Below the pieces are notes generated by a model that saw only the letters and a list, made by a program, of their open reading frames with translations, did not search any database and had not been told where the DNA came from. Positions 3 to 21,437 of a stretch of DNA of 64,000 bases are shown here, in pieces. Source of the DNA: Aquimarina spinulae (GTDB lineage Bacteria > Bacteroidota > Bacteroidia > Flavobacteriales > Flavobacteriaceae); contig NZ_CALSBP010000001.1 of NCBI RefSeq assembly GCF_943373825.1, forward strand, positions 806,001 through 870,000, in the 5' to 3' direction. Position 1 is the stretch's first letter. Every line of letters starts with the position of its first letter. A program made the position numbers and the translations under genes.

Positions 3-3000
3 GAACAAAATGAAAGATTGACATTTATTGATAATGTTTCCCTAAAGGCAGGGGATTGTTTTCCGTCTATGGCTACAAATTATACTGCGGTATATGGTTG
101 TAATACTACATTTTGTGAAGCCGTAGATGATAAAGATGCGACTTCTGTAAATTATTTGAGTTTTGTTCAAGGATCTCCACGTTTCTTGACTGAAAGATCA
201 ACTCTAGTAACAGGAGATTTATGTGGAACTCCTGCTAAACTAAGATTAAAATATACAAATGTAGGAAATGGTTCTAGTTTTACTACTGCAGATACTGCTT
301 TTGATATATATTTAAGTGTTAGTAAAGATTTGGGGCCATATGAGTTATCAATAAATGGAATATCCTTAGGTAGAATAGAAGGTAATAATTATAACCATAA
401 TTTTTACAAATTTTCAGATAACCCAGGCGGTATATTTTCATCTGATCCTGATGGTGTTGGTGTTGGTTTAGACGATATAGATAAAGATGGAGTTTATGAT
501 GATTTACCAGTTGGAGCTTCATTCTTTATTGATGCTGAACTAAGCCTGACATGGGGACCGGATGAAAATATATCTTATGAAGCTCCTTTTATAACCCAGG
601 TATACGGTAAAACTAATGATTGCGGATCAAATACTTTTGTTAATCAATATATGAGGTTAACTTTCCGGTCTACTGAAAACTCTGCTGCAAGCGCTGTTAT
701 ACCAACTGAATTAGCAACGAATCAATCAGAAACATTAATCTTTAAAGTTAATTATCAAAGAATATTGGATTTCTTTCCAGATGATTTACTAAATCTACCT
801 GAAAATTTTTATTCAAAAATTAAACTCCCCCAAAATTATGAAATTACTAATGTAGTATGGAAGGACAACCAAGGCGTTTCTAATGTAGTTTCAGCTAATC
901 AAATAGGTACTGATCTATACGAAATTAAAGCTGGAGGTAAGAGTGGACAATATGAAGTTACTGTTACTGTTGGGTGTAGTGATAGTTTAGTAGAAACAAT
1001 AGAAGATATCGATTGGAATATGTATCTCGATATCTGTAACGATTATAATAGTCTTGAACTTGTTGAGATTGCTAATGTTTCATCATCAATTTTCACATCC
1101 TATGAAAGATGTACTACTGATCCAGGAGGAGGAGGAGGAGGTTCTTGTGATTTTGAAACCAATACATTTGAAGTTAATAGAAATACTTTTGGGTATGTAG
1201 ATAGGTATAATGGAAAACCATTTTATAAAGCAAATGAATTAAGCTCAATACCTAAAGTAAATGTTAACACTCCAGGAATAGAATTAGATGCCGCATATCC
1301 TCAAGATAAGATTCTTATTGAATCTACAGGGAATTTAAATGCTAGTAGTGGAGATTCTTATAATGAAATATCTTTCGAAATAGCTTTTAACCTTCCTGAT
1401 GGGGTAAATCAGAGTTTATTGTCTCATAGTGACGATGGGTTTTTAGTTATTGGGGGAGTGAACTATACTTTGACCAATCCTAATGTGTCAATTGATAATA
1501 GAAATAGAATTACTTATAAGTATTCAGTCCCAGTTAGCTCAATTTCATCTTCTGTATCGTTGGAAGTTAAAGATTTACAATTACAATTTAATAAAAAATC
1601 AACTATAGCATTAGAAAGAGGAGTGTACGACCTACCTGTGTTTAGGGGTAAGTTTTCTGGTAAAAAATCTGGCAGTGATGTAGATTGCGGGACTTCTAAA
1701 GGAGATACTTTTAAAATATTGATTCCATATGTAAATTATAGTTTTAGAGGGACAAATATTCTTGAATGCGATCTTCAACTACAATTATCAACAACATATC
1801 GAACTAATTCTGCAACAGGATCTGATGATTTTTTAAATGAGTATAGGCCACAGTCTTTTTTACAAAGTATGGATGTTACTTTACCTGATGGGTATAGATT
1901 GAATTTTGATAACCCCGGTGCTGTTTATTATGATTATGATTATAATTCAACAGATTACCCACTAAATGTTATTCAGCAATCTCCAGGTAAATTTACTATA
2001 ACTTTTGAAGACGTCTTCGTGTTTTCAGGTAACCGTTCTTATAAAACTATGAAGTTATTTGCAAATATGGAACCTATATGTGATGGCAATTATGTAATTC
2101 CTCCTTTTAATACAGGGGTTAATTATACTATAGATAAAGTTCTTTATATAGATCCTTTTGAAGATTCTGAACAAGTTATAGATCATTATCAATCTACAAA
2201 CTTAAGTCCTACTAGAAATATTAGAGAATATTATAACCTACCGATTAGTGTATCTTCTAATCAAGTTCAAGAAGGTTTTGAGCGAACTACCGATTGGCCG
2301 GTACAGTTTTGTAACATTAGTGAAACAAGTAATTATTGGACAAATATTTCAAATACTTGGATAGCTTTAGAATTAAAGAATGAAGATCAGAGTACCATTT
2401 TGGTTGGTGCTAGAGATGAAAATGGTAATAGTATATCGCAAGAAGATATTATATTTTATGGACCTATAAACCCTCGTTCCGGTAAACCTAGAAATATGTT
2501 GGTTCGAATAAAGGATTCAAAAGTGGCAGCGAAAACCTGTATCACTATTTATCCGATTGCCGAATATCGAGTTTGCGAAAATGATGTACAACAAAACATT
2601 GATCTAATCTCTAGTTGGTCATGTGATTCCTGGCCTCTTTCTGGAGAAGCATATGATGAAATTTCAGAGTTGACAGCTGTAACTTCAATAAACAATCCAG
2701 GAGTATTAGCCTGTCATTTCGAGGTAAAACAAGATATAGTAACGCTACGTTATAAAACCGGAGGAATCGATTGGGAAGTAAACCGTTTGGCAAATGAAGT
2801 AGATCTTTGCGAGAATATTGCTTTTGATGTAAAAGTAGTAAGCTCTAAGTTTGCTAATGTATATGATACCAATGTAACTGTAGATTTACCAGTTGGAGTT
2901 TCGGTTTCAGATGTAAGTACGATAACCTATACCTATAATGGAGCTTCAGCTACAGTACCAGTTTCTTTTATTCAGCAAAATGTATCAGGTACTCAAGATC

Positions 3001-6000
3001 TAATAATCAAAGCATCAGACTTAGTAACTTCTTTACTTGTCGCTTCAGGAGATCTTGTTGATGCTACAGAAAGTACTATTCCAGGGATTCGTTTGCAAGG
3101 TAAGAACGAGATTAGTTTTAGAATAAACCTGAATTCCGATTGTAACTATAATCCAGGAAAACCAGTTCAATTTTTCTTAGAAGGAACGACCAACTGTTCA
3201 GAAAATATCAATCTTCAGTTTGATCGTTTTATTCCGCTTAAAGGATTAACTACTCCAGATATAACAGTAGATATTACGGGTAGTAACTTCTTAGTTTGTA
3301 ATGATAGTAATGAAGTAACAATAGCAGTAGTAAATGCAAGTGTTAACCCAATTGCTCAACAGCAATTGGTAGTTACATTACCAACCGGGGTTACGTATGC
3401 AAACGAGGTAAGTGGTTTCCCTGCACCGACAAGTACTACAGCAACCACAGTAACCTGGAGTCTAGCAGATTTGGATACTAATAAAAATCAAACTTTTAAA
3501 ATAAATACCCGTTTAACCAATCTATCGGGAACCAGTTTTGAGTATCAGGCAGAAACTATACAAAACGGGCAAGCTACTTGTATTTCAAACAATCAGGTTT
3601 GTGACCTTGAGGTTACTACAGCAAGTGATACTGTAGAAGTGGTAAACTCTCCATTTCCGGGAATAACGATCAATACATTAAGTAGTTCTCCTGTGTGCGA
3701 AGGTGAAGACGTGGTGGTAGAAGTTGTACTTTCCGGAGCATTAGCAGGAGGAAGTTATACCTATACCTGGAATGTACAGCCTATATCTTCTAATGGTAAT
3801 CAGTTTACTTTTAGACCATTAAATTCAACATCATTACAGGTTACTGTACAATCTGCAACAAACCCTGCACCTAATTGTAGCGGTACTGCAACTGTAGATG
3901 TAGAAGTATATCCAAGTGCAGAGATAAACCTTACTTTGGTAGATGGTATAAGTTGTTCTGGTAAGTCTGATGGTAAAGTTACGGTTAGCATAACAGGAGA
4001 ACAAGGAACCGGGTATTTAGAGCAAGAACCTTTCGAAATTGTAAATTCTACATATCCTAACCTGGTTACTATTGGTCAACAATTAACAAATGGGCAGGAA
4101 TTAACTATAGAAAATATACCCGAAGGAAACTTTAGCATTACATTCAAAGATAATTATGGGTGTCAATTTGAAAAATCAATAGCGATTGGTGTTGTAGCTA
4201 AACCCATAGATGAATTATGTGTTTCGTTATTACCTTGTGATGTGACAAGTGGTAATATAACGGTATCATTTAGTACTTTAGATGTTCATCCATCTCTTAC
4301 AGGAACAAATTATACAGGAAGAATATATAAAATTACTGGAGGAACGTCTGAAGATATTGTAACCTATACGGGAACATTTCCTGATACACAAAGTCACGAA
4401 CTTATAAATGCAATTGTTGGTGATTTTTATTCTATCGAACTTACTGCAACTAATGGCTGTATATTTAGGACTTCTTTTGTGCCAAAGACTATTGGAGCAA
4501 GCATAAAAATTGAAGATAATAATGGAGATCTAGAAGTTTGTTTTGCCAATGACACTTTAGATGTAAACTTTGAATTAAGAAATAATGGGAACGGCTGTTC
4601 AATTTATGCTGTTTCAGGGTATACTGTATTCTTTGGAGGAGTAGATGATGAAGGTGAATTCGTAGGAACACCAGAAGTGTTTAATGATATTCCTTCATTA
4701 GGAAGTGATCCTACACCATTTCAATTACAGAATGTTGGTCCCGGTAATTATAAAATTTTTGTACAACCAAGTGCGGTTTCATCCTATAGTGGAGATCTTG
4801 GAGTTTGTGGAGAATCTAGTTATTTTAATATAAAGGCGCTTTCTAACTTATCTGTAGATACGATAGCGAATAATCCACAATGTGCGGGAGAAGATTCAGG
4901 TAGTGCAGAAGTTGTGGTAACAGGAAATTCTGGTGCTGTTAGTTATGAATGGACCAATACAGCAGGAGAAGTGGTTTCAGTAGGATATATTGCTACGGGA
5001 CTTATAGCTGGTGAATATAGTGTAGTAGTAGCAGATGAGAGTGGATGTGGAGCAACAGATCCTATTAAAGTAATCTTAGAAGATCCAACGCCTTTAGAAA
5101 CTCCAATAATAGAAGATATCCAAACCAGTTGTGATGCAGTTTCAGGATCAGGAACAACGGGAGGCACAGTATCTGGATATACATCAGGTACCGCACCCTA
5201 TACATTTACATGGTATTTGGTAACCGAAGAAGAAGTTCTTCCTCCAGACGGAGATCCCGTTATTGAATTGGTAGAAGAATTAAAATATCAAGAAATTGTT
5301 CAGGAAGGTGGTACATCTAGTTATCCCGGTATTACACCAGGTAATTATAAGGTTATCGTAACAGATGCCAATGGTTGTACTGCAGAAACAGTAGTTACAG
5401 CAGTAACACAACCCCCTGTAAGACGTAATTATAATATATGTTTAAGTTGGGTATCTCCGACTCAAAAAGAAAGAAATGATACAGAACCAGATACTACGCG
5501 TACGGTTAAACCTATAGGACCATCTACATTTAATCAAGCGATTGCATCAAAAGTAGAGCTTTGTGTTGTTGAAAATGTAGATAAGTTAGAGGCTAATGTA
5601 AATGAGGTTCTTTATAATACAGGTGGATTAGACGATGAGGTGACGTTAAAATATACTCAGGGAACGAGTGATACATATCACTTCACTCTATATTATTATG
5701 ATCGTGCTGGTAACCTGGTACGTACAGTACCACCAGAAGGAGTTCGCACGGTTAGCGATCGTAGTGCAACCGCACATACATATGTTACGGGATATGACTA
5801 TAATAGTATTTCACAATTAGCCAGTCAAAACACACCAGATGGAGGTACTTCACAATTCATATATAATGATATTGGTCAATTATGGTATTCTCAAAACGAA
5901 CGCCAGCAACGAGAAGGAGTATTCTCCTATGTGGTATATGATGAACTGGGTAGAGTGCGCGAAGGTGGAGAAGCCAAATTAAATGGGAAAATATTCCCTG

Positions 6001-9000
6001 CCGATTTCTTGATTAATAATCAGGCGAATCCACAAGTGGCAATCAATTTACCAATGGTTGATAAAACTGAATATATTCAAACTACTTATAATGATAGAGT
6101 AGAAGAAATTTCTTATCGCGATCAAAAACAACGTTTTTTACGTAATAACGTAAGTTTTATTAATAATAAAGATAAAAATGGTAAGCTTACGAAAACATAT
6201 TATAGCTATGATCCTCACGGTAATGTAGAGTGGTGTATACAGGAACTTCCCGGAATCGGAAGAACAACTGTTGCCTATACATATGACTTAGTATCGGGTA
6301 ATGTAAACGAAGTTCATTTCAACAGAGGGCGAGTAGATGAATATCGTCATAAATATACCTATGACGAAGATAATAGAATCGTATCTGTAAAAACGTCTAA
6401 AGATGGTTATGTCTGGGATGAAGATGCTCGATATGATTATTATCTACATGGCCCATTAGCAAGAACCGAACTAGGTGAAGATAAGGTACAGGGATTAGAT
6501 TTTACCTATACCATTCATGGATGGTTAAAAGGTATCAATACACCAGACCTTGCACAGAATGCGTATAACCCAGATGCGAATAATAAACGTGGTGATGCCG
6601 CAACAAAACATGCCAAGGATGAATTTGGTATGGCATTAGGCTATTATCGTGGAGATTTTACTCGTGATGGAGTATTAAATTCTGGACTTACAGCAGCCAA
6701 TCCGTTTAATCTGGAAAATGCAGTAAACGGCGTACAACAGAACCTATATAATGGTAATATTAGCACCTGGACTTCTCAGGTTGCAGAAGAAGCAAAAGAG
6801 AAAAACAGAGCAAGTTACCTTACCGGAAATAGCTACCATTATGACCAGTTAAACCGAATCAAATCATCAACTACACAATTATATAGTGATACCAATCAAA
6901 CTTATGGAGCTATTGGAGGTAGTGCCAATGCCTTTAAAACATCTTACGAGTATGATAAAAATGGTAACCTACAACGATTAAAACGTCATAAGGATGATGG
7001 GCAGTTAATAGATGATCTTACGTATCACTATAATCTTGAAGATCCAAACCTATCAAATCGTTTAACATATGTAGATGATGCTGCAGGACAAGTAAGCACG
7101 GTAATCAATGATTTACCTGATCAAAATGTAGGAAACTATGAATACGATGAAACGGGGCAGTTAATGCGTGATAATAGCGAAGGACTACGTTACGTATGGA
7201 CAGCTGCTGGTAAAGTATCAGAAATTATCCCGGATAATACAGCTAATCCTGATACGCAAAAAGTACACATGTCATTTACTTATGATGGTATGGGTATGCG
7301 TGCGATGAAGCAAGTAAACCGTATGCCATATAATGCGACTGGAGAAGGTCCGCAAATTCATAATCCGGCAGCAGTAGAAACAACCTATTATACTTGTGAT
7401 GCCTCTGGTAATGTAATGGGAATCTATAAGCGTGAGGATGTTAAGGTAAATCCAAATGATGCAACCGATAATACGTATACAGCAACATTTAGTATCTCAG
7501 AGCGACCTATTTACGGTAGTGATCGTGTTGGTCAGGATGTCTTTAACGAAGTGATCTATACACGTACTTATGGATTTGGTGCTATAGAAAACTATGAAGA
7601 GGTAGCTGTACAGTTTATGAGTAACATCACAAACGCATTAGACAATGTATTCTTAGTACAAAACGATAGTAAAGAGTTAACAGATACAAACGGTGCTGTA
7701 GTGCAGGTTCCTGGAACCAAGATGGCGAAAGCTAAAGCAGATCGAACGTTTAATGCATTAGAATATGAAGCTTTACAACAAGAAAATGAAGCTATTGTAC
7801 CTATAGTGACAGATAATAATGTTTTCTTAATCGAGGATACACAGGGTGAAATAATAAGCTATGGTGCAGTAGCGACTAATTACTTTAGTACTGATCCCGA
7901 TCGTTCTGTATTATTGATCTACGATGCATCAGGTAATCTGGTACCAGGATTAGAAACTATTAATGTTGATACGGCTACATCAATTGATCCACAAGCAAAA
8001 ACGGTAGTGGTAAAACACCCATCTAATCCTAGTGAATATTTGATATTCTATAGAGATACAGCTTCTGGGTTACATTGTGCAACCTTGCGTAATAGTGGTG
8101 GAGTATCGATTACAGGTCACCAGGATTTTGCCTATAGTAATTATGGGCGTCATATGGCAGTGATCCAGGATGAACAACAAAAAAAGGCGTATCTTTACGC
8201 CACCATGCATACCGAAGGTACTGTTGCAGCAGATGGTACAGTAACAACACCACCAGGAACCAACCTGGTTCGTTTTACGATTGGTGAAACAGGAGCTGTT
8301 AATTTTGATGGTACATTGCTGCCAGCATACTTTGATAGTTTCGATGCAGCAGGTAATGGAGAGTTGCAGATCGCAACCGATGGTACAGCAATAAGTGTGT
8401 ATCATAACACTTCCTTACCAGCACAGTGGACCGCAGCTACAGATGCAGAAATTCGTACCTGGCAGCTCGATCCGGATACGAAACTACCAGTAGTAGCAAG
8501 TGTATCGACTATTGCAGTAACCAACGGTAATATTGGTAAAGGTTCTTTGATAAACACAGGAGATGATATCTACTATACACAGTATACGCAAGAGGTAACA
8601 ACCAATGCAGATACCAAGGTCGTAAAACGAGCTTCAGATGATCAGGTAGTAGCTACTAACGCCTTAGGGGACCTTAGAGTAAATAAGGATAATAAACTCT
8701 ACCAGTTTGTAGGTACAACAAATAGCGGACAGGAATGGAATCTAGATACTCAAACCAGTACAGCGCTAAATAATTTACCTACTGCTACAGGAGGAGTTAC
8801 AGGATACCAACCATATCAACCGTATACCATTCTTACTACAGAAGATGAGGCAACCAGTGGATTGGTATATCGTGATCTGGGTAATAAGTATTACGAGATC
8901 AAGGATCACCTTGGGAATGTACGAGTAGTAGTAAACGATCGTAAAAATCTGGATCCTGCTACAGGAGACTTAACGGCTAAGGTAGAAAGCTATAATAGTT

Positions 9001-9047
9001 ACTATCCGTTTGGGATGCTACAACCTAATCGTCATAAAGACTTCTAA
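3..9047 (+). CDS. Giant RHS/YD-repeat surface protein core, 5'-truncated by the window, ends at a frameshift
   Basis: The reading frame is open to the left edge, so the true start is outside; the TTG at 18 is not a credible start. The N-terminal 1800 or so visible residues are beta-rich adhesin-like sequence, with a Gly6 linker near residue 370 and SprB-like repeats near 1300-1700 ending in patterns such as G-x-Y-x-V-x-V-x-D-x-x-G-C. YD repeats begin near residue 1870 (YYYDRAGNLVRTVPPEG). About residues 2595-2950 lack YD repeats and look beta-propeller-like. The end of the core (DHLGNVRVVVND, then YYPFGMLQPNRHKD) is typical of Bacteroidota RHS shells, which encapsulate a C-terminal toxin. The frame then stops at TAA 9045-9047, although the sequence continues into the conserved RHS motif in another frame. 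Recognition as an RHS protein is firm; export by T9SS is inferred. Confidence 0.93.
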   Translation, partial: EQNERLTFIDNVSLKAGDCFPSMATNYTAVYGCNTTFCEAVDDKDATSVNYLSFVQGSPRFLTERSTLVTGDLCGTPAKLRLKYTNVGNGSSFTTADTAFDIYLSVSKDLGPYELSINGISLGRIEGNNYNHNFYKFSDNPGGIFSSDPDGVGVGLDDIDKDGVYDDLPVGASFFIDAELSLTWGPDENISYEAPFITQVYGKTNDCGSNTFVNQYMRLTFRSTENSAASAVIPTELATNQSETLIFKVNYQRILDFFPDDLLNLPENFYSKIKLPQNYEITNVVWKDNQGVSNVVSANQIGTDLYEIKAGGKSGQYEVTVTVGCSDSLVETIEDIDWNMYLDICNDYNSLELVEIANVSSSIFTSYERCTTDPGGGGGGSCDFETNTFEVNRNTFGYVDRYNGKPFYKANELSSIPKVNVNTPGIELDAAYPQDKILIESTGNLNASSGDSYNEISFEIAFNLPDGVNQSLLSHSDDGFLVIGGVNYTLTNPNVSIDNRNRITYKYSVPVSSISSSVSLEVKDLQLQFNKKSTIALERGVYDLPVFRGKFSGKKSGSDVDCGTSKGDTFKILIPYVNYSFRGTNILECDLQLQLSTTYRTNSATGSDDFLNEYRPQSFLQSMDVTLPDGYRLNFDNPGAVYYDYDYNSTDYPLNVIQQSPGKFTITFEDVFVFSGNRSYKTMKLFANMEPICDGNYVIPPFNTGVNYTIDKVLYIDPFEDSEQVIDHYQSTNLSPTRNIREYYNLPISVSSNQVQEGFERTTDWPVQFCNISETSNYWTNISNTWIALELKNEDQSTILVGARDENGNSISQEDIIFYGPINPRSGKPRNMLVRIKDSKVAAKTCITIYPIAEYRVCENDVQQNIDLISSWSCDSWPLSGEAYDEISELTAVTSINNPGVLACHFEVKQDIVTLRYKTGGIDWEVNRLANEVDLCENIAFDVKVVSSKFANVYDTNVTVDLPVGVSVSDVSTITYTYNGASATVPVSFIQQNVSGTQDLIIKASDLVTSLLVASGDLVDATESTIPGIRLQGKNEISFRINLNSDCNYNPGKPVQFFLEGTTNCSENINLQFDRFIPLKGLTTPDITVDITGSNFLVCNDSNEVTIAVVNASVNPIAQQQLVVTLPTGVTYANEVSGFPAPTSTTATTVTWSLADLDTNKNQTFKINTRLTNLSGTSFEYQAETIQNGQATCISNNQVCDLEVTTASDTVEVVNSPFPGITINTLSSSPVCEGEDVVVEVVLSGALAGGSYTYTWNVQPISSNGNQFTFRPLNSTSLQVTVQSATNPAPNCSGTATVDVEVYPSAEINLTLVDGISCSGKSDGKVTVSITGEQGTGYLEQEPFEIVNSTYPNLVTIGQQLTNGQELTIENIPEGNFSITFKDNYGCQFEKSIAIGVVAKPIDELCVSLLPCDVTSGNITVSFSTLDVHPSLTGTNYTGRIYKITGGTSEDIVTYTGTFPDTQSHELINAIVGDFYSIELTATNGCIFRTSFVPKTIGASIKIEDNNGDLEVCFANDTLDVNFELRNNGNGCSIYAVSGYTVFFGGVDDEGEFVGTPEVFNDIPSLGSDPTPFQLQNVGPGNYKIFVQPSAVSSYSGDLGVCGESSYFNIKALSNLSVDTIANNPQCAGEDSGSAEVVVTGNSGAVSYEWTNTAGEVVSVGYIATGLIAGEYSVVVADESGCGATDPIKVILEDPTPLETPIIEDIQTSCDAVSGSGTTGGTVSGYTSGTAPYTFTWYLVTEEEVLPPDGDPVIELVEELKYQEIVQEGGTSSYPGITPGNYKVIVTDANGCTAETVVTAVTQPPVRRNYNICLSWVSPTQKERNDTEPDTTRTVKPIGPSTFNQAIASKVELCVVENVDKLEANVNEVLYNTGGLDDEVTLKYTQGTSDTYHFTLYYYDRAGNLVRTVPPEGVRTVSDRSATAHTYVTGYDYNSISQLASQNTPDGGTSQFIYNDIGQLWYSQNERQQREGVFSYVVYDELGRVREGGEAKLNGKIFPADFLINNQANPQVAINLPMVDKTEYIQTTYNDRVEEISYRDQKQRFLRNNVSFINNKDKNGKLTKTYYSYDPHGNVEWCIQELPGIGRTTVAYTYDLVSGNVNEVHFNRGRVDEYRHKYTYDEDNRIVSVKTSKDGYVWDEDARYDYYLHGPLARTELGEDKVQGLDFTYTIHGWLKGINTPDLAQNAYNPDANNKRGDAATKHAKDEFGMALGYYRGDFTRDGVLNSGLTAANPFNLENAVNGVQQNLYNGNISTWTSQVAEEAKEKNRASYLTGNSYHYDQLNRIKSSTTQLYSDTNQTYGAIGGSANAFKTSYEYDKNGNLQRLKRHKDDGQLIDDLTYHYNLEDPNLSNRLTYVDDAAGQVSTVINDLPDQNVGNYEYDETGQLMRDNSEGLRYVWTAAGKVSEIIPDNTANPDTQKVHMSFTYDGMGMRAMKQVNRMPYNATGEGPQIHNPAAVETTYYTCDASGNVMGIYKREDVKVNPNDATDNTYTATFSISERPIYGSDRVGQDVFNEVIYTRTYGFGAIENYEEVAVQFMSNITNALDNVFLVQNDSKELTDTNGAVVQVPGTKMAKAKADRTFNALEYEALQQENEAIVPIVTDNNVFLIEDTQGEIISYGAVATNYFSTDPDRSVLLIYDASGNLVPGLETINVDTATSIDPQAKTVVVKHPSNPSEYLIFYRDTASGLHCATLRNSGGVSITGHQDFAYSNYGRHMAVIQDEQQKKAYLYATMHTEGTVAADGTVTTPPGTNLVRFTIGETGAVNFDGTLLPAYFDSFDAAGNGELQIATDGTAISVYHNTSLPAQWTAATDAEIRTWQLDPDTKLPVVASVSTIAVTNGNIGKGSLINTGDDIYYTQYTQEVTTNADTKVVKRASDDQVVATNALGDLRVNKDNKLYQFVGTTNSGQEWNLDTQTSTALNNLPTATGGVTGYQPYQPYTILTTEDEATSGLVYRDLGNKYYEIKDHLGNVRVVVNDRKNLDPATGDLTAKVESYNSYYPFGMLQPNRHKDF

Positions 9048-9170
9048 ATCCTATAGATATGGATTCCAGGGACAAGAAAAAGATGACGAAATCAAAGGCG
9101 AAGGGAATTCTGTAAACTATAAGTATAGAATGCATGACCCTAGATTAGGGAGATTCTTTGCAGTGGATCC
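8999..9170 (+). repeat. Left inverted repeat (RHS tip junction), 172 bp
   Basis: This stretch matches the reverse complement of 14261-14431 with six substitutions and one 1-base indel (extra C at 9041). It starts at TTACTATCCG and ends at the GGATCC of the RHS motif coding for FFAVDP. The substitutions lie in three codons and are synonymous (Ser TCT/AGC, Arg AGA/CGT) or conservative (Val/Ile), so both copies have been kept under protein-level selection. Identity ends abruptly where the toxin tips diverge. This is the expected crossover zone for tip exchange. Confidence 0.95.
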
Positions 9171-10083
9171 ACTTACATCGAAATATCCTTTTTATTCAGC
9201 ATATAGTTTTAGTGGTAATAGGGTTGTTGATGCTTTTGAATTAGAAGGATTAGAACCATTTATGCCAGGTGTTTATGAATCTACTAGGGCTTTTAGAGAA
9301 AAACACATGGGTACCGCCTTTGTTGAACAGGATGACAAGGTTATTACAATAGGTCTGCTGGGAACAATGACCATTATAACAGGAGGAGCACTATTACCTG
9401 TTATGGAAGGTGCATTAGGTAGTAGCTTATTATGGGCTTCTAATCCAGGTAATCAAGCTCTGCTATTCGAAGGAACAGCCTTTACATCTGGTTTAGTTTT
9501 TGGTGATGCTTTGCCTGAAGGTTTGTTTCTTAATTCAGGAATGGATGAGACATCCAAAGTTATAAGACGTATTGCAGGAGGACTAGGAGATGATATAGTA
9601 AAAAATACTTCTTCTGTGCTAAGAGAGATTAGAAAAAAGATAAATCCTTCTGGAAGTATGGCGAATTGTGTTGATTGCGCAATTAATTTTCATAGAATGG
9701 TAGCTCAAGGAGCTAATGACATAATCGCAGCACCATCAAGTGGCAAACCAACGGAAAAAATAGGGTTTTATATGAAAGAAGTTTTTGGGTGGGGTAATGT
9801 TTTTGATGAAACTATAAACCATAGGAATAAAGAAGGGATTATAGGCTTATCAAATAATTTGTTTCATCATTTAGAAAATGTAGGACAAGAAGTAGTTACT
9901 ATTTTAGGGAGGTTGAAAGAGCCTAGAAATGGAATTACTGATCATGTTTTTAATGCAGTAAGAGATGGTAATGGAGTTTGGAAGGTAATAGATGTTCAAA
10001 ATGCTACGGAACCTGCAAATTCATTTATAAACAAAACTTACAATAATTTAAAAGTTTACCAAGCAATAATAGATAACAACTAA
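9010..10083 (+). CDS. RHS C-terminal tip 1: conserved RHS end motif plus papain-like toxin domain (out of frame with the core)
   Basis: The frame carries YRYGFQGQEKDDEIKGEG and DPRLGRFFAVDPL (residues 15-55), the hallmark that closes the RHS shell and precedes a variable toxin. The TTG at 9010 is not a real start: this is the continuation of the core after a 1-base insertion at 9041, and true coding probably begins about 9042. After a hydrophobic Gly/Ala-rich stretch (110-170), residues 215-357 carry NCVDCA (C220, C223), DHVF (H312) and VWKVIDVQ (D328, Q330). This Cys...His...Asp-x-Gln order fits papain-fold polymorphic toxins (Tox-PL, often glutamine deamidases). The enzyme assignment rests on motifs read by eye. 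The stop overlaps the next start by one base (TAATG), as in toxin-immunity pairs. Confidence 0.8.
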   Translation: MGCYNLIVIKTSKSYRYGFQGQEKDDEIKGEGNSVNYKYRMHDPRLGRFFAVDPLTSKYPFYSAYSFSGNRVVDAFELEGLEPFMPGVYESTRAFREKHMGTAFVEQDDKVITIGLLGTMTIITGGALLPVMEGALGSSLLWASNPGNQALLFEGTAFTSGLVFGDALPEGLFLNSGMDETSKVIRRIAGGLGDDIVKNTSSVLREIRKKINPSGSMANCVDCAINFHRMVAQGANDIIAAPSSGKPTEKIGFYMKEVFGWGNVFDETINHRNKEGIIGLSNNLFHHLENVGQEVVTILGRLKEPRNGITDHVFNAVRDGNGVWKVIDVQNATEPANSFINKTYNNLKVYQAIIDNN

Positions 10084-10613
10084 TGATTTCAGAAGAAGAA
10101 ATAGAAAAAATAATTAGTGATTTTAGACCAAAGGAAGGAGAGTATAAATGTTATAGATATGTTAAGGACGGAGTATTGTTCTTTAATTTTTCCCCAGAAG
10201 ATGTTGATGATAGAGAAGCTCAAGCTGGTGGAGGAGACAATAGAGGTTTTCCAACTATTAGATTGAGTACTGGAGAAATAGAATATATTCATTATTTAGA
10301 TTTTCCTTTAGAATTGTTTGATCAGATTCCAAAACCTAATTGTGAGCTAATTATCTCTAAGATAAAAAAAAGAAAATTCATTAATCTAGGGGATATATAT
10401 AATTTTTCACTAGACAAATTTGGTGAGGATAACCCTGAAGATGTTATTTATTATAAGATAGAAATAGATGTTATAGGTATAGAGTTTTTTAATGAAGATG
10501 TTAGAAAATCATATGAATCTTTTTTTAATCAAGTAGGGGCAAAATTTATAGTCAACACTAATGATAAACTAGAGGTATTAAGAGAATTGCCTTGCTCCAC
10601 TAAGGGTGATTAA
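10083..10613 (+). CDS. Predicted immunity protein for tip 1
   Basis: A 176-residue acidic protein without signal peptide or membrane segment, starting at ATG 10083 within the TAATG overlap with tip 1. Small size, cytosolic character and translational coupling directly 3' of an RHS toxin tip are the usual signs of the cognate immunity gene, which would bind and block the papain-like domain. I do not recognise a named immunity family; a central segment (GFPTIRLSTGEIEYIHYLDF) looks like a beta hairpin. The last codons (CSTKGD then TAA) resemble the start of two cassette-end elements further right (10830 and 11071), which read RSPKSD and RSSKSD before a stop in the same alignment. Confidence 0.7.
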   Translation: MISEEEIEKIISDFRPKEGEYKCYRYVKDGVLFFNFSPEDVDDREAQAGGGDNRGFPTIRLSTGEIEYIHYLDFPLELFDQIPKPNCELIISKIKKRKFINLGDIYNFSLDKFGEDNPEDVIYYKIEIDVIGIEFFNEDVRKSYESFFNQVGAKFIVNTNDKLEVLRELPCSTKGD

Positions 10614-10647
10614 CCTCAGATGACGCTAGTTTGTCAAAATAACAGAT

Positions 10648-10724
10648 ACCCCCCGATGGTTCTAGTATGTGAAAGTAAGGGCTACCGCTAAGCTTGGCTT
10701 AGTTGCGTGTAAGAGTAAGCAAAC
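10648..10724 (+). repeat. Cassette-end element A
   Basis: It starts ACCCCCCG, contains CTAG, GCTACCGCTA and a small hairpin (CTAAGC-ttg-GCTTAG), and runs into a hairpin terminator. It aligns with the minus-strand element D at 12592-12490: both share ACCCCCCG, CTAG and an exact GCTACCGCTA in the same order. It follows immunity gene 1, as element D follows immunity gene 2, so it seems to mark the 3' boundary of a tip-immunity cassette. Its function is unknown. Confidence 0.6.
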
Positions 10725-10753
10725 AAAAGCTGATTAGAGATGGTCAGCTTTTT
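10725..10753 (+). terminator. Hairpin terminator after tip 1/immunity 1 cassette
   Basis: AAAAGCTGA (10725-10733) pairs with TCAGCTTTTT (10744-10753), giving a short stem followed by T-rich sequence. It closes the RHS-tip-immunity transcript. Confidence 0.7.
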
Positions 10754-10829
10754 GTATTTTAGTCTAATAAGTAGGAAATATAAGTTTCGTAACAAGAGTG
10801 GTTTATATTTTGTAAGGGCTGTAGTTTAA

Positions 10830-10915
10830 ACCCCGCTCTCCGAAGAGTGATTAAATAAAAGTTATGATGCTGCGCAAAGTCTCCTGACTTCGCGTTAGCG
10901 TATAGTAATACAGAT
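10830..10915 (+). repeat. Cassette-end element B (scar copy)
   Basis: ACCCCGCTCTCCGAAGAGTG opens this copy. It is followed by an imperfect hairpin around 10871-10894 (GCGCAAAGTC and GACTTCGCG about a TCCT loop). It is a near repeat of element C at 11071, but no immunity gene precedes it. Only about 75 bp separates the element A terminator from it, and I see no gene there. It looks like the residue of a lost cassette. Confidence 0.65.
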
Positions 10916-10955
10916 AAAAACAGTTACAGGCATTTAGTTTGTAGCTGTTTTTTTT
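10916..10955 (+). terminator. Hairpin with T-tract after element B
   Basis: AAAAACAGTTACA and TGTAGCTGTTTTTTTT form an imperfect stem followed by eight T residues. It stands in the same position relative to element B as the other hairpins do to elements A and C, although no complete gene precedes it now. Confidence 0.65.
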
Positions 10956-10970
10956 ATGTTTTATGGAGTT

Positions 10971-11072
10971 CTAAGAATATACTAACCTAGCTTTAGCATC
11001 CCTAATCATAGCATCAATAGTAAAAAGGACATGTTCTCTATCAGTATCAGGTAGTTTTTGTATAGTTAGTAC
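10971..11072 (-). pseudogene. C-terminal fragment of an XRE-family (helix-turn-helix) regulator
   Basis: On the minus strand a frame ending at TAG 10973-10971 reads LPDTDREHVLFTIDAMIRD followed by AKARLVYS and the stop. This resembles the C-terminal tail of small XRE-type regulators of Bacteroidota, from memory of the family (a D-R-x-x-V-x-x-x-I-D-x-x-x-R-D-A-K-A pattern). The helix-turn-helix domain is missing: going upstream the frame runs into element C and then a stop. I take it as the remnant of a regulator from an earlier cassette. It is too short for firm family assignment. Confidence 0.5.
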
Positions 11073-11168
11073 CCCGCTCTTCGAAGAGTGATTAACTTAA
11101 AAACGTGATGTTACGCAACGTCTCCCGACTTTGCGTTTGAGTACAGTTATAGTATGCATAGAAATGAT
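11071..11168 (+). repeat. Cassette-end element C (scar copy)
   Basis: It opens ACCCCGCTCTTCGAAGAGTG, nearly identical to element B, and includes the palindrome CTCTTCGAAGAG. A hairpin follows (ACGCAACGTC, loop TCCC, GACTTTGCGT near 11111-11136). Stem bases differ from element B yet pairing is broadly kept, which suggests the folded form matters. No immunity gene precedes it. Confidence 0.65.
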
Positions 11169-11196
11169 AAAAGCTACTTAGAAATAGGTAGCTTTT
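11169..11196 (+). terminator. Hairpin terminator after element C
   Basis: AAAAGCTAC pairs with GGTAGCTTTT around a TTAGAAATA loop. The same AAAAGCTAC/GTAGCTTTT stem recurs in the terminator between the recombinase gene and immunity 2 (12444-12471). Confidence 0.7.
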
Positions 11197-11216
11197 GTCT
11201 TTATATCAAACAGAGT

Positions 11217-11250
11217 TTAATCGATATAAAATGTGTTTTATATCGATTAA
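11217..11250. repeat. Perfect 15-bp inverted repeat upstream of the recombinase gene
   Basis: TTAATCGATATAAAA (11217-11231) and TTTTATATCGATTAA (11236-11250) are exact reverse complements around TGTG. No T-tract follows; an A-rich stretch does. It lies 100 bp before the recombinase start. It could be a regulator operator, a recombinase arm site or an AT-rich hairpin. Only the symmetry is observed. Confidence 0.8.
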
Positions 11251-11275
11251 TATAAAAAAAATAAAAAAATATTTA

Positions 11276-11315
11276 CCCAGTCCCGAAAAATGAAACTCAG
11301 GACTCGTATTCTTGT
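11276..11315 (+). repeat. 40-bp direct repeat, copy 1 (leader of the recombinase gene)
   Basis: This 40-bp sequence (CCCAGTCCCGAAAAATGAAA at its start, ending ATTCTTGT) recurs exactly at 14674-14713 in the same orientation. An A-rich run precedes both copies. Inside it, AGTCC and GGACT form a small inverted repeat. Copy 1 lies 37 bp before the recombinase ATG. Confidence 0.93.
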
Positions 11316-11345
11316 TAGAGTAAATAATGTAGTGAGGCAAGAATA
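11307..11345. promoter_or_regulatory. 8-bp inverted repeat at the recombinase gene start
   Basis: TATTCTTG (11307-11314) and CAAGAATA (11338-11345) are inverted around 23 bp and end just before the ATG at 11353. The left arm is the tail of the 40-bp direct repeat; the right arm is absent after the second copy of that repeat. It could be an autoregulatory operator or a recombinase binding pair. Confidence 0.45.
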
Positions 11346-11352
11346 TAAATAA

Positions 11353-12402
11353 ATGAAAAAAATAGTTGATTTAATACCTCTTTTTAAACAGTTTATTCGA
11401 GATTCTGAAACAGGAAAGCGATTAAAAAAAAATGGGAATAGAATTACCTCGGGTACTATCGATAATTACCGATATGTATTGCATAATTTGATTGAGTTTT
11501 CCAGCTCTTGCGATTTTGATTTACGAATCTGTGATGCACAAAAACTAACAAAGCGAGAATTTGAATCTGAAAAGAACTATTGGAAGAAGTTCTATCGAAA
11601 ATTCTCTGATTTCATGTATAAAAAAGGATGTTATGATAATTATGTAGGTAGTAATATGAAACAGATACGTACCTTCTTTAATTACCTAAAAAATGAAAAA
11701 CATTTTAATACTGGCGATTTTCATAAGCTTTTATATGTTCGTAAAGAAGAAGTAGATATCTTAGTGATATCTCCAGAACAATTAAAGTTCTTGATTCATA
11801 ACAAAGAATTTGAAACTATACTTACTCCTCCCGAAAAGCGTATCAAAGATATTTTTGTATTTGGCTGTACTACAGGTTTGCGTTTTTCTGATATTTTTTT
11901 GTTAACGACTAAAAACTTTGAAATGCAAAATGGAGATTGGTATTTAAAGGTTAAAAGCAAAAAAACAAAAGCCTACAGCTCGGTAAAATTACCAGGATAT
12001 GCAGTGAACATCTACCAGAAGTATAAATCTAAGAGTGCCAAAATTACTTTGTTTACTCCAATAACATTATATAGCTTCAATAAAACGCTAAAAAGTATCG
12101 GTGAAAAAGCAAATTTTACTGCTCCTATAGAGCTTTCTAGGGAGCGACAGGGTAAAACCTATACTGTCTATAAAAATACTCAGAAAAAGCCAGAACGTTT
12201 TTGTGATAAAATGAGTTCTCATATGATGAGACGTACAGCTATTACCACTTTACTAATTTTAGGGATGCCAGAACATTTGGTACGTACCATAAGTGGGCAT
12301 AGTGCTAATAGTAACTCCTTTTATAGATATGTACATTTTGCTCAATCCTATGTAGATAAAGAGATTGAAAAAGTATACAATAAGTTAGAAACATACGAGT
12401 AG
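11353..12402 (+). CDS. Tyrosine recombinase / phage-integrase family protein
   Basis: A 349-residue protein with an N-terminal SAM-like core-binding region (about 5-130) and a catalytic domain (135-345). The catalytic set is readable: R177 in TTGLRFSD, a Lys in KSKKTKAYSS (about 204), H290 and R293 in SHMMRRTA, H316 in SGHS and Y326 in FYRYVHF. It resembles the Bacteroidota family that catalyses site-specific inversions, integration and shufflon switching. It lies between two inverted RHS tip modules, points away from tip 1 and converges with immunity 2. The obvious proposal is that it rearranges these tips, but its target site is not proved. The ATG start at 11353 is preceded by A-rich sequence. 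Confidence 0.93.
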   Translation: MKKIVDLIPLFKQFIRDSETGKRLKKNGNRITSGTIDNYRYVLHNLIEFSSSCDFDLRICDAQKLTKREFESEKNYWKKFYRKFSDFMYKKGCYDNYVGSNMKQIRTFFNYLKNEKHFNTGDFHKLLYVRKEEVDILVISPEQLKFLIHNKEFETILTPPEKRIKDIFVFGCTTGLRFSDIFLLTTKNFEMQNGDWYLKVKSKKTKAYSSVKLPGYAVNIYQKYKSKSAKITLFTPITLYSFNKTLKSIGEKANFTAPIELSRERQGKTYTVYKNTQKKPERFCDKMSSHMMRRTAITTLLILGMPEHLVRTISGHSANSNSFYRYVHFAQSYVDKEIEKVYNKLETYE

Positions 12403-12443
12403 TAGTTTTTCTGCTAAAAAAATATCTTAAATCATAAAATAAC

Positions 12444-12471
12444 AAAAGCTACCCATTTCTAGGTAGCTTTT
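12444..12471. terminator. Bidirectional terminator between the recombinase and immunity 2
   Basis: AAAAGCTACC (12444-12453) and GGTAGCTTTT (12462-12471) are perfect complements with A/T tracts on both sides, so it can work for both converging transcripts. Confidence 0.75.
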
Positions 12472-12489
12472 AGCTATTAGTATAGTATT

Positions 12490-12592
12490 ATTTCTTACTC
12501 TTATCGCGATTACTCTTACGTTGCCAATCTTTATCTCCACTAGTCAAAGACGTAGCGGTAGCAATCACTCTAGTGCTAGTCAAGCGGGGGGT
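12490..12592 (-). repeat. Cassette-end element D
   Basis: Read on the minus strand from 12592, it opens ACCCCCCG, then CTAG, AGAGTGATT and GCTACCGCTA. This matches the order in element A and shares the GAGTGATT block of elements B and C. It lies directly 3' of immunity gene 2. An open minus-strand frame runs through it, with a tail reading TSGDKDWQRKSNRDKSKK and a stop near 12488; this could be a decayed coding end, but I do not recognise it. Confidence 0.6.
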
Positions 12593-12617
12593 AAAACCCC
12601 AACTATCTATTAATTAT

Positions 12618-13334
12618 TTAAATTAGGTCTAATGTTTTCAACATTTTTTTCTGCTTATCTCTATGTTTAGAATAATCATCATTTATATTTTCGAATAATA
12701 GTACTTTAAATAAACCATTATTCATTTTATTCAATTTATATACAAAATCTAGTTTTTTAATAAAACCCTCATCAATAATTTCTCCGAACCATGAACAGTA
12801 TCCAGCTATGTATGAAATACCACCTTTAAAAATACTTCTACCATAATTTTTTGAAATATCTATACATTTTTTATCCCAAAAATCTACATTAAAACTCAGT
12901 CCCTTTGTAGTTTTATTATTCATTTCATAAAATAATATAGACTCTTCATCTTGCCATTTCACATCATAATAATTAGTCAAAACAGCATAGCATATATTAT
13001 TCAATCGTGACACAAAATTCTCGATTTCAATAACCATCTCATTATTATAGCTAAAATAATAAGAACAACAAAAGATTTTAGTGTCATTATAATCAATTTT
13101 AGATAGATGTAAGCTATAGTCATTTTCTAAATTAATTATTAATCCATCATTACTTTCGTTATCTATAATTTGTTTAAATCCAGAAAAATATTCGTCATTG
13201 TTAGTTACAATACTTTCTATTACAACATCATTTTTTATTAATTCATGAAAATCCAAAAATGTTTTTTTCTCACAACTATAAAATTTAAATATTGTTTCTT
13301 TTGAATAATCTTTAACTTTCTTTTTAAATATCAT
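12618..13334 (-). CDS. Predicted immunity protein for orphan tip 2
   Basis: A protein of about 238 residues, AT-rich, without signal peptide. I start it at the ATG at 13334, 13 bp after the tip 2 stop; an upstream TTG at 13364 would overlap tip 2 by 17 bp. Position and orientation directly 3' of a toxin tip on the minus strand suggest the immunity gene. No family is recognised. It contains many aromatic and acidic residues (for example CSYYFSYNN and SWFGEIIDEGF). It ends just before cassette-end element D and faces the recombinase gene across a shared terminator. Confidence 0.65.
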   Translation of the reverse strand: MIFKKKVKDYSKETIFKFYSCEKKTFLDFHELIKNDVVIESIVTNNDEYFSGFKQIIDNESNDGLIINLENDYSLHLSKIDYNDTKIFCCSYYFSYNNEMVIEIENFVSRLNNICYAVLTNYYDVKWQDEESILFYEMNNKTTKGLSFNVDFWDKKCIDISKNYGRSIFKGGISYIAGYCSWFGEIIDEGFIKKLDFVYKLNKMNNGLFKVLLFENINDDYSKHRDKQKKMLKTLDLI

Positions 13335-13347
13335 TTTGTTGACTGAG

Positions 13348-14415
13348 TTATAATTTTGAATCAATATTCACTTTTACATTATTATCTTTACCGTGCTTAA
13401 TTAATTTTTGAAAATCGTCATAATATTTACCTCCTTCTTTAGTGAATTCTTTTAGTAGTTTATCAGGTACTAATATATCTAAAACTCCTTCCTTTGGTGA
13501 GTAATTTATTCCTTTAAATTTAAATCCATTAGATACCTTGTTCGCTATTTTATTAATGTATCCCTTATATGTACTTAAAGAAAATTTATCTGCTTTAAAA
13601 GTTTTAAAAGAAGAAAAAACATTTCCTTTAACAAAATCAAAAGACGGAAAATTTGGAGATATGTTATCTAACCATTGCCATCCTTTATATTTAGTAGTTG
13701 CTGCGAATCTTTCAATTAATCTCCCTCTCGTAGTTCCATAAAAATTAGCAAACATTTGCTTAATCGCTGTGTTTGCAAAAGATTTTTGCATTACCTTTCT
13801 AAAAGTTCGGGAATAAATTCCACCTCCTACAAGGGCCAAAGGGTAGTCAATTAAACTAGAACCTTCTACATGAGTTGCATCAAAAGGTATGTCTAAGGAC
13901 ATCCTAATTGTTTCACCACCTAATAACCAACTTACATCATATTGGGCAAAATGTACAAATTCCCCATCCATATATGATGTTTTTGCTCCACCAGTAAATT
14001 TTAAATGGACATCAGTTTCATCATCAACTAACCCCATTCCTTTAAGTCCTTTCGCAATTCCTAAAATATTTTGTGTAAAGCTACCCTTAAATTTTTCTTG
14101 TACATTTCTTGGGTTAAGAACAAAAATTTTCGACTTATCATATCCTTCTAAAGAATTATTTATTACAATTCTTTTTTCTAGCCCTTCTAATTCAGTAGCC
14201 CATATTACACTATTTTCGCTAAAAGAATAAGGACTATTCCATGGGTATTTTATAGCCAACGGATCCACTGCAAAGAATCTCCCTAATCTAGGGTCATGCA
14301 TACGATACTTATAGTTTATGCTATTCCCTTCGCCTTTGATTTCGTCATCTTTTTCTTGTCCCTGGAATCCATATCTATAGGATTTAGAATCTTTATGACG
14401 ATTAGGTTGTAGCAT
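13348..14415 (-). CDS. Orphan RHS C-terminal tip 2: RHS end motif plus restriction-endonuclease-like toxin
   Basis: It begins inside the conserved RHS end: MLQPNRHKDSKSYRYGF, then DPRLGRFFAVDPL (residues 41-53), in one intact frame, unlike tip 1. There is no core upstream, so it is an orphan module and is expected to be silent unless fused to an RHS core. The ATG at 14415 is internal to the motif and may not be used. The C-terminal domain (about 225-355) shows RGRLIE (E235), PSFDF (D260) and SSFKTF (K271). That E...D...S-x-K spacing fits PD-(D/E)XK nuclease toxins (Tox-REase group), so DNA cleavage is the likely activity. The nuclease call is by motif only. Confidence 0.8.
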   Translation of the reverse strand: MLQPNRHKDSKSYRYGFQGQEKDDEIKGEGNSINYKYRMHDPRLGRFFAVDPLAIKYPWNSPYSFSENSVIWATELEGLEKRIVINNSLEGYDKSKIFVLNPRNVQEKFKGSFTQNILGIAKGLKGMGLVDDETDVHLKFTGGAKTSYMDGEFVHFAQYDVSWLLGGETIRMSLDIPFDATHVEGSSLIDYPLALVGGGIYSRTFRKVMQKSFANTAIKQMFANFYGTTRGRLIERFAATTKYKGWQWLDNISPNFPSFDFVKGNVFSSFKTFKADKFSLSTYKGYINKIANKVSNGFKFKGINYSPKEGVLDILVPDKLLKEFTKEGGKYYDDFQKLIKHGKDNNVKVNIDSKL

Positions 14416-14431
14416 CCCAAACGGATAGTAA
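14261..14431 (-). repeat. Right inverted repeat (RHS tip junction), 171 bp
   Basis: Reverse-complement partner of 8999-9170, about 96% identical. It keeps the RHS motif in frame (AAA GAT TCT AAA), which shows that the extra C at 9041 in the left copy is the deviation. Homology stops at TTACTATCCG; upstream sequence (14432 onward) has nothing in common with the RHS core. Confidence 0.95.
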
Positions 14432-14673
14432 TCAAAATCTTGTTTACATCAGTATTTAAAAGAACTTTGGCAATTTTTATGAGAACGAAAATAACCATTT
14501 GTTGTTAAAATCAACAATAATTTTACTGCTTTTATAACATCCCGTATACATTTTTTTAAGGGTAAAGGATATTCATTTCTAAATAAGAATTATTGATCTT
14601 TATGTACCACCAAAATAAAAATAGACTTATACTATCATAATGTTAAAGATCAAAAAAAATAAAAAAAATAATT

Positions 14674-14713
14674 CCCAGTCCCGAAAAATGAAACTCAGGA
14701 CTCGTATTCTTGT
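14674..14713 (+). repeat. 40-bp direct repeat, copy 2
   Basis: Identical over 40 bp to 11276-11315 and in the same orientation, again after a run of A residues. The pair brackets about 3.4 kb that holds the recombinase, immunity 2 and tip 2, so exchange between the copies would excise that block as a circle. No recombinase gene follows this copy. Confidence 0.93.
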
Positions 14714-14917
14714 ACTGTGAAAAATGATGGAGCGTGAAGATTAAGTATGATTTTCATGAGATTTAGGTTAATGTAAAAGCATGATGTAGAATGATTTGAT
14801 ATGTTTGATTGCATGTAATGTAAGGTGTGGAAAATGTATAGAGAGTTAGCTTTTTTGAGAAAAATAGACTTCTTAAAGCAAAGTTAAATCTTAACTTTTT
14901 AACAACTTAAAAATGAA

Positions 14918-15141: not shown

Positions 15142-15186
15142 CGCAAAAAATAATAACCACGATGGTTGGAAAAGTATTGTAAAGGA

Positions 15187-17183: not shown

Positions 17184-17502
17184 TGTAAAAGCAGGGTCTG
17201 TTATAGAATCGGTAATTGCCATGACTATCATTGCAATTTGCTTGTCTATGGCGCTTATAATTTATAGTAGAGTGTTGGGATCTGATCATAGTATTGCTCA
17301 TTATCAAGCTCGGCAGAAGGTAAAAGAATTGTTTTGGGAAACAAAAAGCGAAAAACAATTTATAGATGAAGATTATGATTTTGAATCTTTTACTGTAGTA
17401 AAAAAAGTAGAGAAATTAGAAAATAACACAGGATTTAAAGTTGTATTTACGATAAAGGTGCAATCAAAAAAAGAAACATATCAATACATTGTTAGAGAAT
17501 AA
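17161..17502 (+). CDS. Minor pseudopilin (GspI/PilV-like)
   Basis: A 113-residue protein from ATG 17161; a GTG at 17143 is an alternative. The leader MQLLNKYNVKA is followed by GSVIESVIAMTIIAIC, with Glu at +5 and a transmembrane helix typical of type IV pilin-like proteins. The remainder is a small alpha/beta domain. It overlaps the end of the upstream gene and the start of the next, so translation is coupled. Confidence 0.75.
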   Translation: MQLLNKYNVKAGSVIESVIAMTIIAICLSMALIIYSRVLGSDHSIAHYQARQKVKELFWETKSEKQFIDEDYDFESFTVVKKVEKLENNTGFKVVFTIKVQSKKETYQYIVRE

Positions 17503-19106: not shown

Positions 19107-19115
19107 AAAAGGAAA

Positions 19116-21435: not shown

Positions 21436-21437
21436 TT

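What the first reader, a model, noticed from the sequence alone, without database searches (positions are those of the whole stretch)
8999..14431. Invertible RHS toxin-tip switch: core plus tip 1, recombinase, and an inverted orphan tip 2
A 171/172-bp inverted repeat covers the junction of the RHS core with tip 1 and the start of an orphan tip 2 on the other strand. A tyrosine recombinase lies between the two modules. Inversion between the repeats would join the same giant core to tip 2 (nuclease-like) with its immunity gene and park tip 1 (papain-like) in reverse. This is shufflon logic applied to a polymorphic toxin: one delivery shell, two warheads with immunities, and a recombinase inside the invertible block. 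The repeat copies are constrained at protein level, as expected if each is used in turn.
Basis: partly seen in the sequence, partly recalled or inferred. Interest (0 to 1): 0.9.

Follow-up and report, generated by a model that had tools for sequence, protein, structure and literature searches.

The report
Flippable toxin-tip switch in marine bacteria
A bacterium keeps two probable toxin tips, each with a probable antidote gene, on one DNA segment bounded by mirror-image copies of a short site, with a DNA-flipping enzyme gene inside; relatives show the segment both ways round, so flipping probably chooses which tip is attached to the giant delivery protein.

Summary
The inverted repeat is real (~257 nt, 42 nt identical) around a block with tip 1, a putative immunity gene, a tyrosine recombinase, and an oppositely oriented immunity 2/tip 2 pair. 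Recombinase relatives were found at 66 further Bacteroidota loci, 59 with RHS arms; in all 44 loci with arms on both strands (window included) the arms converge. Of 27 loci with a full site on each strand, 26 pairs are identical over 20 nt although wobble bases differ between loci; identity drops to background just upstream. The crossover site is therefore placed in the YYPFG codons. In Aquimarina sp. AU58 (same species by label) the recombinase lies inverted relative to both flanks. Recombinase orientation is mixed when the gene is inside the block (9 versus 7). Twelve of 43 nearby contig ends lie within 10 nt of the site. Corrections: in this assembly the core is NOT in frame with tip 1 (stop at 9047; the 25 other core joints examined are open); AU58 carries different tips; no reads or experiment were available. 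Ten searches of an open-licence paper library found no described equivalent. A secretin/pilin-type cluster lies next door.

The parts
3..9047 (+). RHS core (delivery shell) reading frame; begins before the window, stops inside the arm
   Evidence: RHS repeat matches; full-length relatives of ~3,590 aa, P0234 with the YYPFG site near residue 3,256
8999..9255 (+). inverted-repeat arm 1 (core side), start of the tip-1 module; RHS-associated core region
9000..9019 (+). core-side copy of the proposed crossover site, in the YYPFG codons
   Evidence: identical in both arms of 26 of 27 loci, sharp identity step
9043..10083 (+). tip 1 (unique part 9256-10083); weak match to papain-fold glutamine-deamidase-like families
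10083..10613 (+). putative immunity 1, overlapping the end of tip 1
   Evidence: no family; inferred from position
11353..12402 (+). tyrosine recombinase inside the invertible block
12618..13364 (-). putative immunity 2, overlapping the end of tip 2
   Evidence: no family; inferred from position
13348..14415 (-). orphan tip 2; no convincing family match of its own, 4 of 21 aligned relatives weakly match a restriction-endonuclease-like CDI toxin family
14176..14431 (-). inverted-repeat arm 2 (orphan side)
14411..14430 (-). orphan-side copy of the proposed crossover site
14460..14465 (-). GTTCTT hexamer 35 nt upstream of the orphan site; fixed position in many loci, possible recombinase accessory element
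   Evidence: GTTCTT in 26 of 42 orphan sites, 0.76 expected
17489..25984 (+). neighbouring secretin/pilin (type II secretion / type IV pilus-like) cluster, candidate exporter (association only)

Best explanation
This is a site-specific DNA inversion switch for an RHS polymorphic toxin. The tyrosine recombinase is inferred to recombine two inverted ~20-nt sites placed in the codons for YYPFG.M, at the border of the constant RHS core and the variable tip. One site is in the core gene; the other heads an orphan tip with only a few open codons upstream. Each flip would swap which tip, followed by its own putative immunity gene, is attached to the core, and park the other. SHOWN by sequence: convergent arms, the identity step, a conserved catalytic set, and a naturally inverted recombinase stretch in a genome labelled the same species. 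INFERRED: that this recombinase does it, that it is reversible within a culture, that the parked tip is silent, and that the tips are toxins with cognate immunity. As assembled, this strain's core-tip 1 joint is out of frame: a real lesion, or an assembly fault at a mixed site.
For: 1): window vs Aquimarina AU58: core 2251-9268 (94.5%) and right flank 14183-22621 (95.0%) align in one orientation, recombinase 11169-12502 (93%) in the other; this locus is in G056, labelled same species. 2): 19 core/orphan arm pairs: identity about 0.3 upstream, 1.00 at all 20 site positions, then decline; 26 of 27 pairs identical over 20 nt, 27 of 27 over 14. 3): within pairs 0 of 96 synonymous differences in codons 1-6, vs 13 of 69, 26 of 167, 107 of 338 further on; between loci 270 of 855 in codons 1-6. 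4) TACTATCC in 70 of 74 YYPFG runs at recombinase loci vs 2 of 20 and 1 of 6 (window's own copy left out) in other RHS genes of the genus. 5) RHS arms in 60 of 67 loci; arms converge in 44 of 44 loci with arms on both strands. 6): recombinase orientation to the core is mixed when inside the block (9:7, not clustered on the tree); when outside with core visible it is the same in 8 of 8. 7): the same secretion-cluster flank with both recombinase orientations (W, L037, L059, L069 vs L021, L038, L043). 8): none of 49 loci has two full sites on one strand. 9): 12 of 43 contig ends within 10 nt of a site. 10): R177, K204, H290, R293, H316, Y326 kept in at least 65 of the 65-67 sequences with a residue there.
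Against: No reads, PCR or experiment. AU58's tips are unrelated to the window's, so its state is inversion plus tip replacement, not a clean flip. Neither tip has more than a weak match in 65 other genus genomes. The window's own core stops at 9047. In 16 of 60 loci arms were seen on one strand only, several cut by contig ends. L085's sites differ after position 14. L054 and L055 have two sites but no long core frame at either. L075 and L086 have the recombinase outside the block in another layout, core not visible, so the outside position is not one fixed layout. Contig ends at the site could also come from RHS paralogues.
Confidence: 0.88

Rival explanations
1. RecA-type homologous recombination or gene conversion between ordinary displaced RHS tips; the recombinase is an unrelated neighbour.
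For: The arms are alike over ~257 nt, and orphan RHS tips proposed to recombine with the main gene by homology are known (PMC3967940, passages).
Against: Identity begins at the same codon in the 19 pairs, is 100% over 20 nt including wobble bases and decays after that. RHS arms lie near the recombinase in 60 of 67 loci, where about 0.05 RHS cores per 21 kb would be expected from this genome's 14 matches in 6.24 Mb (another model than one search's).
Confidence: 0.06
2. The recombinase is mainly a tip-capture integrase (cassette insertion at the YYPFG site), and inversion is a by-product.
For: Both tips differ completely between the window and AU58 while core, flank and recombinase stay 93-95% alike. 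Arrays of extra tips with altered half-sites exist.
Against: Insertion of circular cassettes should leave same-strand full sites; none of 49 loci has two. Convergence in 44 of 44 two-strand loci suits inversion.
Confidence: 0.15
3. Relic: a once active switch, now locked in this strain by the frame break in the core-side arm.
For: Core stop at 9047; the 25 other core joints examined are open.
Against: Recombinase open, with the conserved residues. A database record of tip 1 (P0048, 355 aa, 833,641-bp contig) has an uninterrupted arm and starts inside it as a stand-alone ORF, while no near-identical stand-alone record of tip 2 was listed (best 66%).
Confidence: 0.12

Closest known systems
Shufflon of plasmid R64 (Rci tyrosine recombinase, PilV tips; recalled, seen only as a reference title)
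   Same: constant N-part gene, alternative C-parts exchanged by DNA inversion by a neighbouring tyrosine recombinase
   Different: cargo is an RHS toxin tip with its own putative immunity gene; at most one full site per strand in 49 loci; site lies in conserved RHS codons; recombinase scores on Xer-type models, below their cut-offs; no Rci test was made
Salmonella Typhimurium rhs-main/rhs-orphan rearrangement (PMC3967940; abstract and passages)
   Same: an orphan tip with immunity gene becomes joined to the main rhs gene
   Different: there a 522-bp region of 95% identity and proposed duplication plus homologous recombination that deletes one copy of an immunity gene; here inverted sites, a conserved recombinase and, if it is inversion, no loss of either immunity gene
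RHS C-terminal displacement arrays (Jackson et al. 2009, seen only as a reference in PMC13183296)
   Same: arrays of parked tips and immunity genes with the core
   Different: as PMC13183296 puts it, tips change by displacement and leave pseudogene tips; here a recombination site and enzyme are conserved
Invertible phase-variation switches, some with the recombinase inside the segment (Hin, RecV; PMC5903667 passages)
   Same: inversion by an adjacent recombinase, sometimes located in the segment
   Different: those switches control expression (in part recalled); this one swaps protein domains inside a reading frame

Membership tests
RHS/YD polymorphic toxin locus | RHS repeats plus RHS-associated core domain before a variable C-terminal tip | tested here: met
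   (tip 1's domain just under cut-off)
RHS/YD polymorphic toxin locus | tip followed by an immunity gene | tested here: inconclusive
   overlapping downstream ORFs at both tips, no family match
RHS/YD polymorphic toxin locus | tip is toxic and neutralised by its neighbour | not testable with these tools
   only weak toxin-family matches
Tyrosine-recombinase DNA inversion switch | two inverted recombination sites around the segment | tested here: met
   by sequence; recombination at them not shown
Tyrosine-recombinase DNA inversion switch | adjacent recombinase with R-K-H-R-H-Y set | tested here: met
   (that these are the catalytic residues is from general knowledge)
Tyrosine-recombinase DNA inversion switch | both orientations found | tested here: met
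   between genomes only; not within one culture
Tyrosine-recombinase DNA inversion switch | inversion depends on the recombinase | not testable with these tools
   needs a deletion or reporter assay
Shufflon (Rci/PilV) | shared N-part with exchangeable C-parts by inversion | tested here: inconclusive
   anatomy fits; exchange not shown
Shufflon (Rci/PilV) | recombinase is an Rci orthologue acting at sfx sites | not tested
   best model matches are Xer types, below cut-off
Salmonella-type rhs main/orphan pair | orphan in the same orientation as the main gene | tested here: not met
   orphan tip 2 is on the other strand

The most novel reading that the evidence does not exclude
A two-tier toxin diversification system widespread in Bacteroidota. 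A dedicated Xer-like recombinase flips two live tips at a site written into conserved RHS codons. It is backed in some loci by an archive of further tips whose half-sites are altered so that they cannot be flipped directly. The module is linked to a secretin/pilin machine that may export the giant RHS protein.
Probability: 0.5. Interest if true: 0.92.

Novelty: new variant of a known kind. Interest (0 to 1): 0.86.

Why it matters
How orphan toxin tips are brought into use is an open question for RHS systems (my judgement); the one described route that I read about is homologous recombination that costs a copy of an immunity gene (PMC3967940 passages). A programmed, reversible swap that retains both immunity genes would let a clone hold two weapon states while all siblings keep both immunities. 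It would explain why orphan tips are kept, and makes the question testable with long reads. The site would be a 20-nt sequence under two constraints at once: it must encode conserved RHS residues and be recombined.

Tried and rejected
Direct repeat 11254-11315/14652-14713 as attachment sites of a mobile unit: rejected, it is a dispersed repeat with 13 matches in the genome. Direct repeat 10822-10910/11063-11151: two local copies plus a 26-nt match elsewhere, no role found. Same tips elsewhere: no match in 298 other family genomes (searched with own); in 65 other genus genomes two weak matches each. Giant RHS proteins with the same core (P0234-P0238, 96-100% over 410 aa; only the 7,993 candidates sharing most words were scored) bear other tips: no blastp match of either window tip among the 26 proteins listed. 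Solved-structure sequence searches for recombinase and both tips: nothing convincing. PADLOC: none for 5 proteins. Palindromic arms in the site: looked for by eye only, not convincing. Ten paper searches listed no paper that I recognised as describing an invertible RHS tip; only open-licence PMC papers are held and most were seen as listings, so this is not proof of absence.

Full report
OBSERVATION. The inverted repeat is confirmed: 42 nt at 100% (8999-9040/14390-14431) followed by 214 nt at 81%, one arm being one nucleotide longer. Between the arms lie tip 1 and an overlapping downstream ORF (+), a tyrosine recombinase (+), and a mirror-image ORF/tip 2 pair (-). Both tips start with the RHS-associated core domain (tip 1 at 32.1 bits, just under the 32.5 cut-off). 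The recombinase is a Phage_integrase protein, the only match at E<=0.001 in the 6.24-Mb genome. Of 26 core-side joints examined, 25 are open for at least 250 codons; the window is the exception.

RELATIVES. One scan of one-genome-per-species contigs with the recombinase returned 66 loci, 46-97% identical, from Bacteroidota: mostly Flavobacteriaceae, also Chitinophagales and a Xanthocytophaga; a few come from one genome (for example L024 and L028). With a profile made from 46 arms of these same loci, RHS-associated core segments were found in 60 of 67 loci (66 plus the window). The seven misses (L027, L030, L048, L065, L075, L081, L084) have the recombinase within 1.3 kb of a contig end, and L030, L075 and L081 show the site there. 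The window's genome has 14 matches to TIGR03696, so about 0.05 are expected per 21 kb. In the 44 loci with arms on both strands the arms converge, without exception; 16 loci show arms on one strand only.

THE SITE. Sites followed by fewer than 40 open codons were dropped, the window excepted; 49 loci keep at least one full YYPFG-coding site and 27 have one on each strand. Of these 27 pairs, 26 are identical over 20 nt and 27 over 14 nt; L085 differs after position 14. For the 19 of them with a clear core side and orphan side, identity is about 0.3 upstream of the site (0.63 in the last five bases), 1.00 at every one of 20 positions, then falls through 0.9 and 0.8 to about 0.5-0.65 (compared without gaps, so the window's pair is out of register beyond its length difference). 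These 19 pairs hold 11 different 20-mers. Within pairs 0 of 96 synonymous codons differ in codons 1-6, against 13 of 69 (7-10), 26 of 167 (11-20) and 107 of 338 (21-50); between loci 270 of 855 differ in codons 1-6. The pairs were chosen by the encoded residues, not by synonymous bases, so the absence of synonymous differences is not a selection effect. At recombinase loci 70 of 74 YYPFG runs read TACTATCC. In other RHS genes of the genus 2 of 20 do and 17 read TATTATCC (40 regions fetched with YYPFG), and 1 of 6 once the window's own copy is left out. Most control genomes had been searched for the recombinase and the control regions lie elsewhere; G057 and G058 (4 of the 20) had not. A GTTCTT hexamer sits at preferred distances upstream: orphan sites 26 of 42 (0.76 expected; 15 at -35), core sites 9 of 26 (0.49 expected; 8 at -18), array arms without the full site 37 of 63 (1.16 expected; 23 at -17/-18). 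Its role is unknown; an accessory recombinase site is my guess.

INVERSION IN NATURE. Against Aquimarina sp. AU58 (L021) the window's core (2251-9268, 94.5%) and right flank (14183-22621, 95.0%) align in one orientation, while the recombinase stretch (11169-12502, 93%) aligns in the other. AU58's coordinates match genome G056, labelled the same species. AU58's two tips are unrelated to the window's, so tips have been replaced too. When the recombinase lies inside the block it points with the core in W, L023, L024, L029, L037, L047, L050, L058, L060 and against it in L021, L025, L031, L038, L043, L062, L064. When it lies just outside, with both full sites and the core visible, it points with the core in 8 of 8 (L028, L032, L041, L053, L073, L076, L077, L080). 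I classified these by hand; L060's second arm is a motif match only. L075 and L086 show another outside layout, with the recombinase pointing at a site and the core not visible; L054 and L055 have two sites but no long core frame. On a recombinase tree of these 24 the inside orientations need 7 and 6 changes, as many as shuffled labels (7.4, 6.2); the outside layout is clustered (3 against 6.9). The same secretion-cluster flank appears with both recombinase orientations (W, L037, L059, L069 against L021, L038, L043). None of 49 loci has two full sites on one strand, so inversion and not excision is the expected product.

MIXED STATES IN CULTURES: indirect only. Of 43 contig ends within 10 kb of the recombinase, 25 lie between 130 nt upstream and 260 nt downstream of an arm start, and 12 within 10 nt (about 3.9% and 0.2% per end expected if uniform with one arm per side). 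L022, L026 and L052 are contigs that end 3-8 nt outside the site at both ends. For L022's strain a core protein record ends 23 residues from the start of YYPFG, marked partial, on another contig (P0239). Forks at the site are what reads from both orientations would cause, but RHS paralogues sharing arms could do the same. For the window's own tips: a tip 1 record, P0048 (355 aa, 833,641-bp contig), starts inside an uninterrupted arm as a stand-alone ORF, and no near-identical stand-alone record of tip 2 was listed (best 66%; only proteins of 0.55-1.75 times its length are candidates). So an intact arm is on record; whether the window's frame break is real or an assembly fault at a mixed site I cannot tell.

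TIPS AND ENZYME. Tip 1 matches an OspI-like glutamine deamidase family weakly (0.013) and 4 of 18 aligned members match the papain-fold toxin family (best 0.0099). Tip 2 itself has no convincing match; 4 of 21 aligned members match a restriction-endonuclease-like CDI toxin family (best 0.0038) and one a YwqJ-like deaminase (3.7e-4). A tip 2 homologue joined in frame to a core end exists (P0001, 66%, 435 aa). The recombinase keeps R177 (65 of 67), K204 (67 of 67), H290 (65 of 67), R293 (66 of 67), H316 (65 of 65) and Y326 (65 of 65); that these are catalytic is general knowledge of the family.

ARRAYS. 19 of 60 loci show 3-6 arm matches (a few may be fragments). The extra arms that I could read in L022, L029 and L044 have an altered left half of the site. 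I read them as retired tips, reachable by homologous recombination only; this is inference.

NEIGHBOURHOOD. Directly downstream lies a cluster with matches to T2SSF, T2SSE, secretin, pilins, prepilin peptidase and PilN. Homologues of its genes lie within 10 kb of the recombinase in 12 of 66 loci, AU58 among them. It may be the exporter; not tested.

LITERATURE. Ten searches of an open-licence library listed no invertible RHS tip system that I recognised. Passages were read in PMC3967940, PMC13183296, PMC10210955, PMC5903667 and PMC5808330. Shufflon details are recalled.

VERDICT. The switch is real anatomy with strong comparative support; confidence 0.88 that it works by site-specific inversion. 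It combines two known kinds (DNA inversion and polymorphic toxins) in a way of which I found no description: a new variant of a known kind, of high interest.

Noticed in passing
window 17489-25984; L021, L033, L037, L038, L043, L059, L065, L068, L069, L070, L085, L086: A secretin/pilin (type II secretion or type IV pilus-like) gene cluster lies next to the RHS switch in the window; homologues of its genes lie within 10 kb of the recombinase in 12 of 66 related loci. In L065, L068 and L085 its T2SSF match abuts the recombinase tail to tail.
   Followed up: partly
L069 6142-16954: The orphan-type site lies between parts of the secretion operon, so that MORN, bactofilin-like and T2SSF matches are on the recombinase side of it.
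   Followed up: no
L022, L029, L044, L085: Extra RHS tips whose site has an altered left half, many with GTTCTT near -17/-18.
   Followed up: partly
window 11254-11315 and 14652-14713: Dispersed repeat with 13 matches in the genome, two of them flanking the recombinase/tip 2 part; function unknown.
   Followed up: partly
window 10822-10910 and 11063-11151: Local 89-nt repeat pair, 79% alike, between immunity 1 and the recombinase.
   Followed up: no
window 8999-9047: The core-side arm is one nucleotide longer than the other arm; the core frame stops at 9047.
   Followed up: partly
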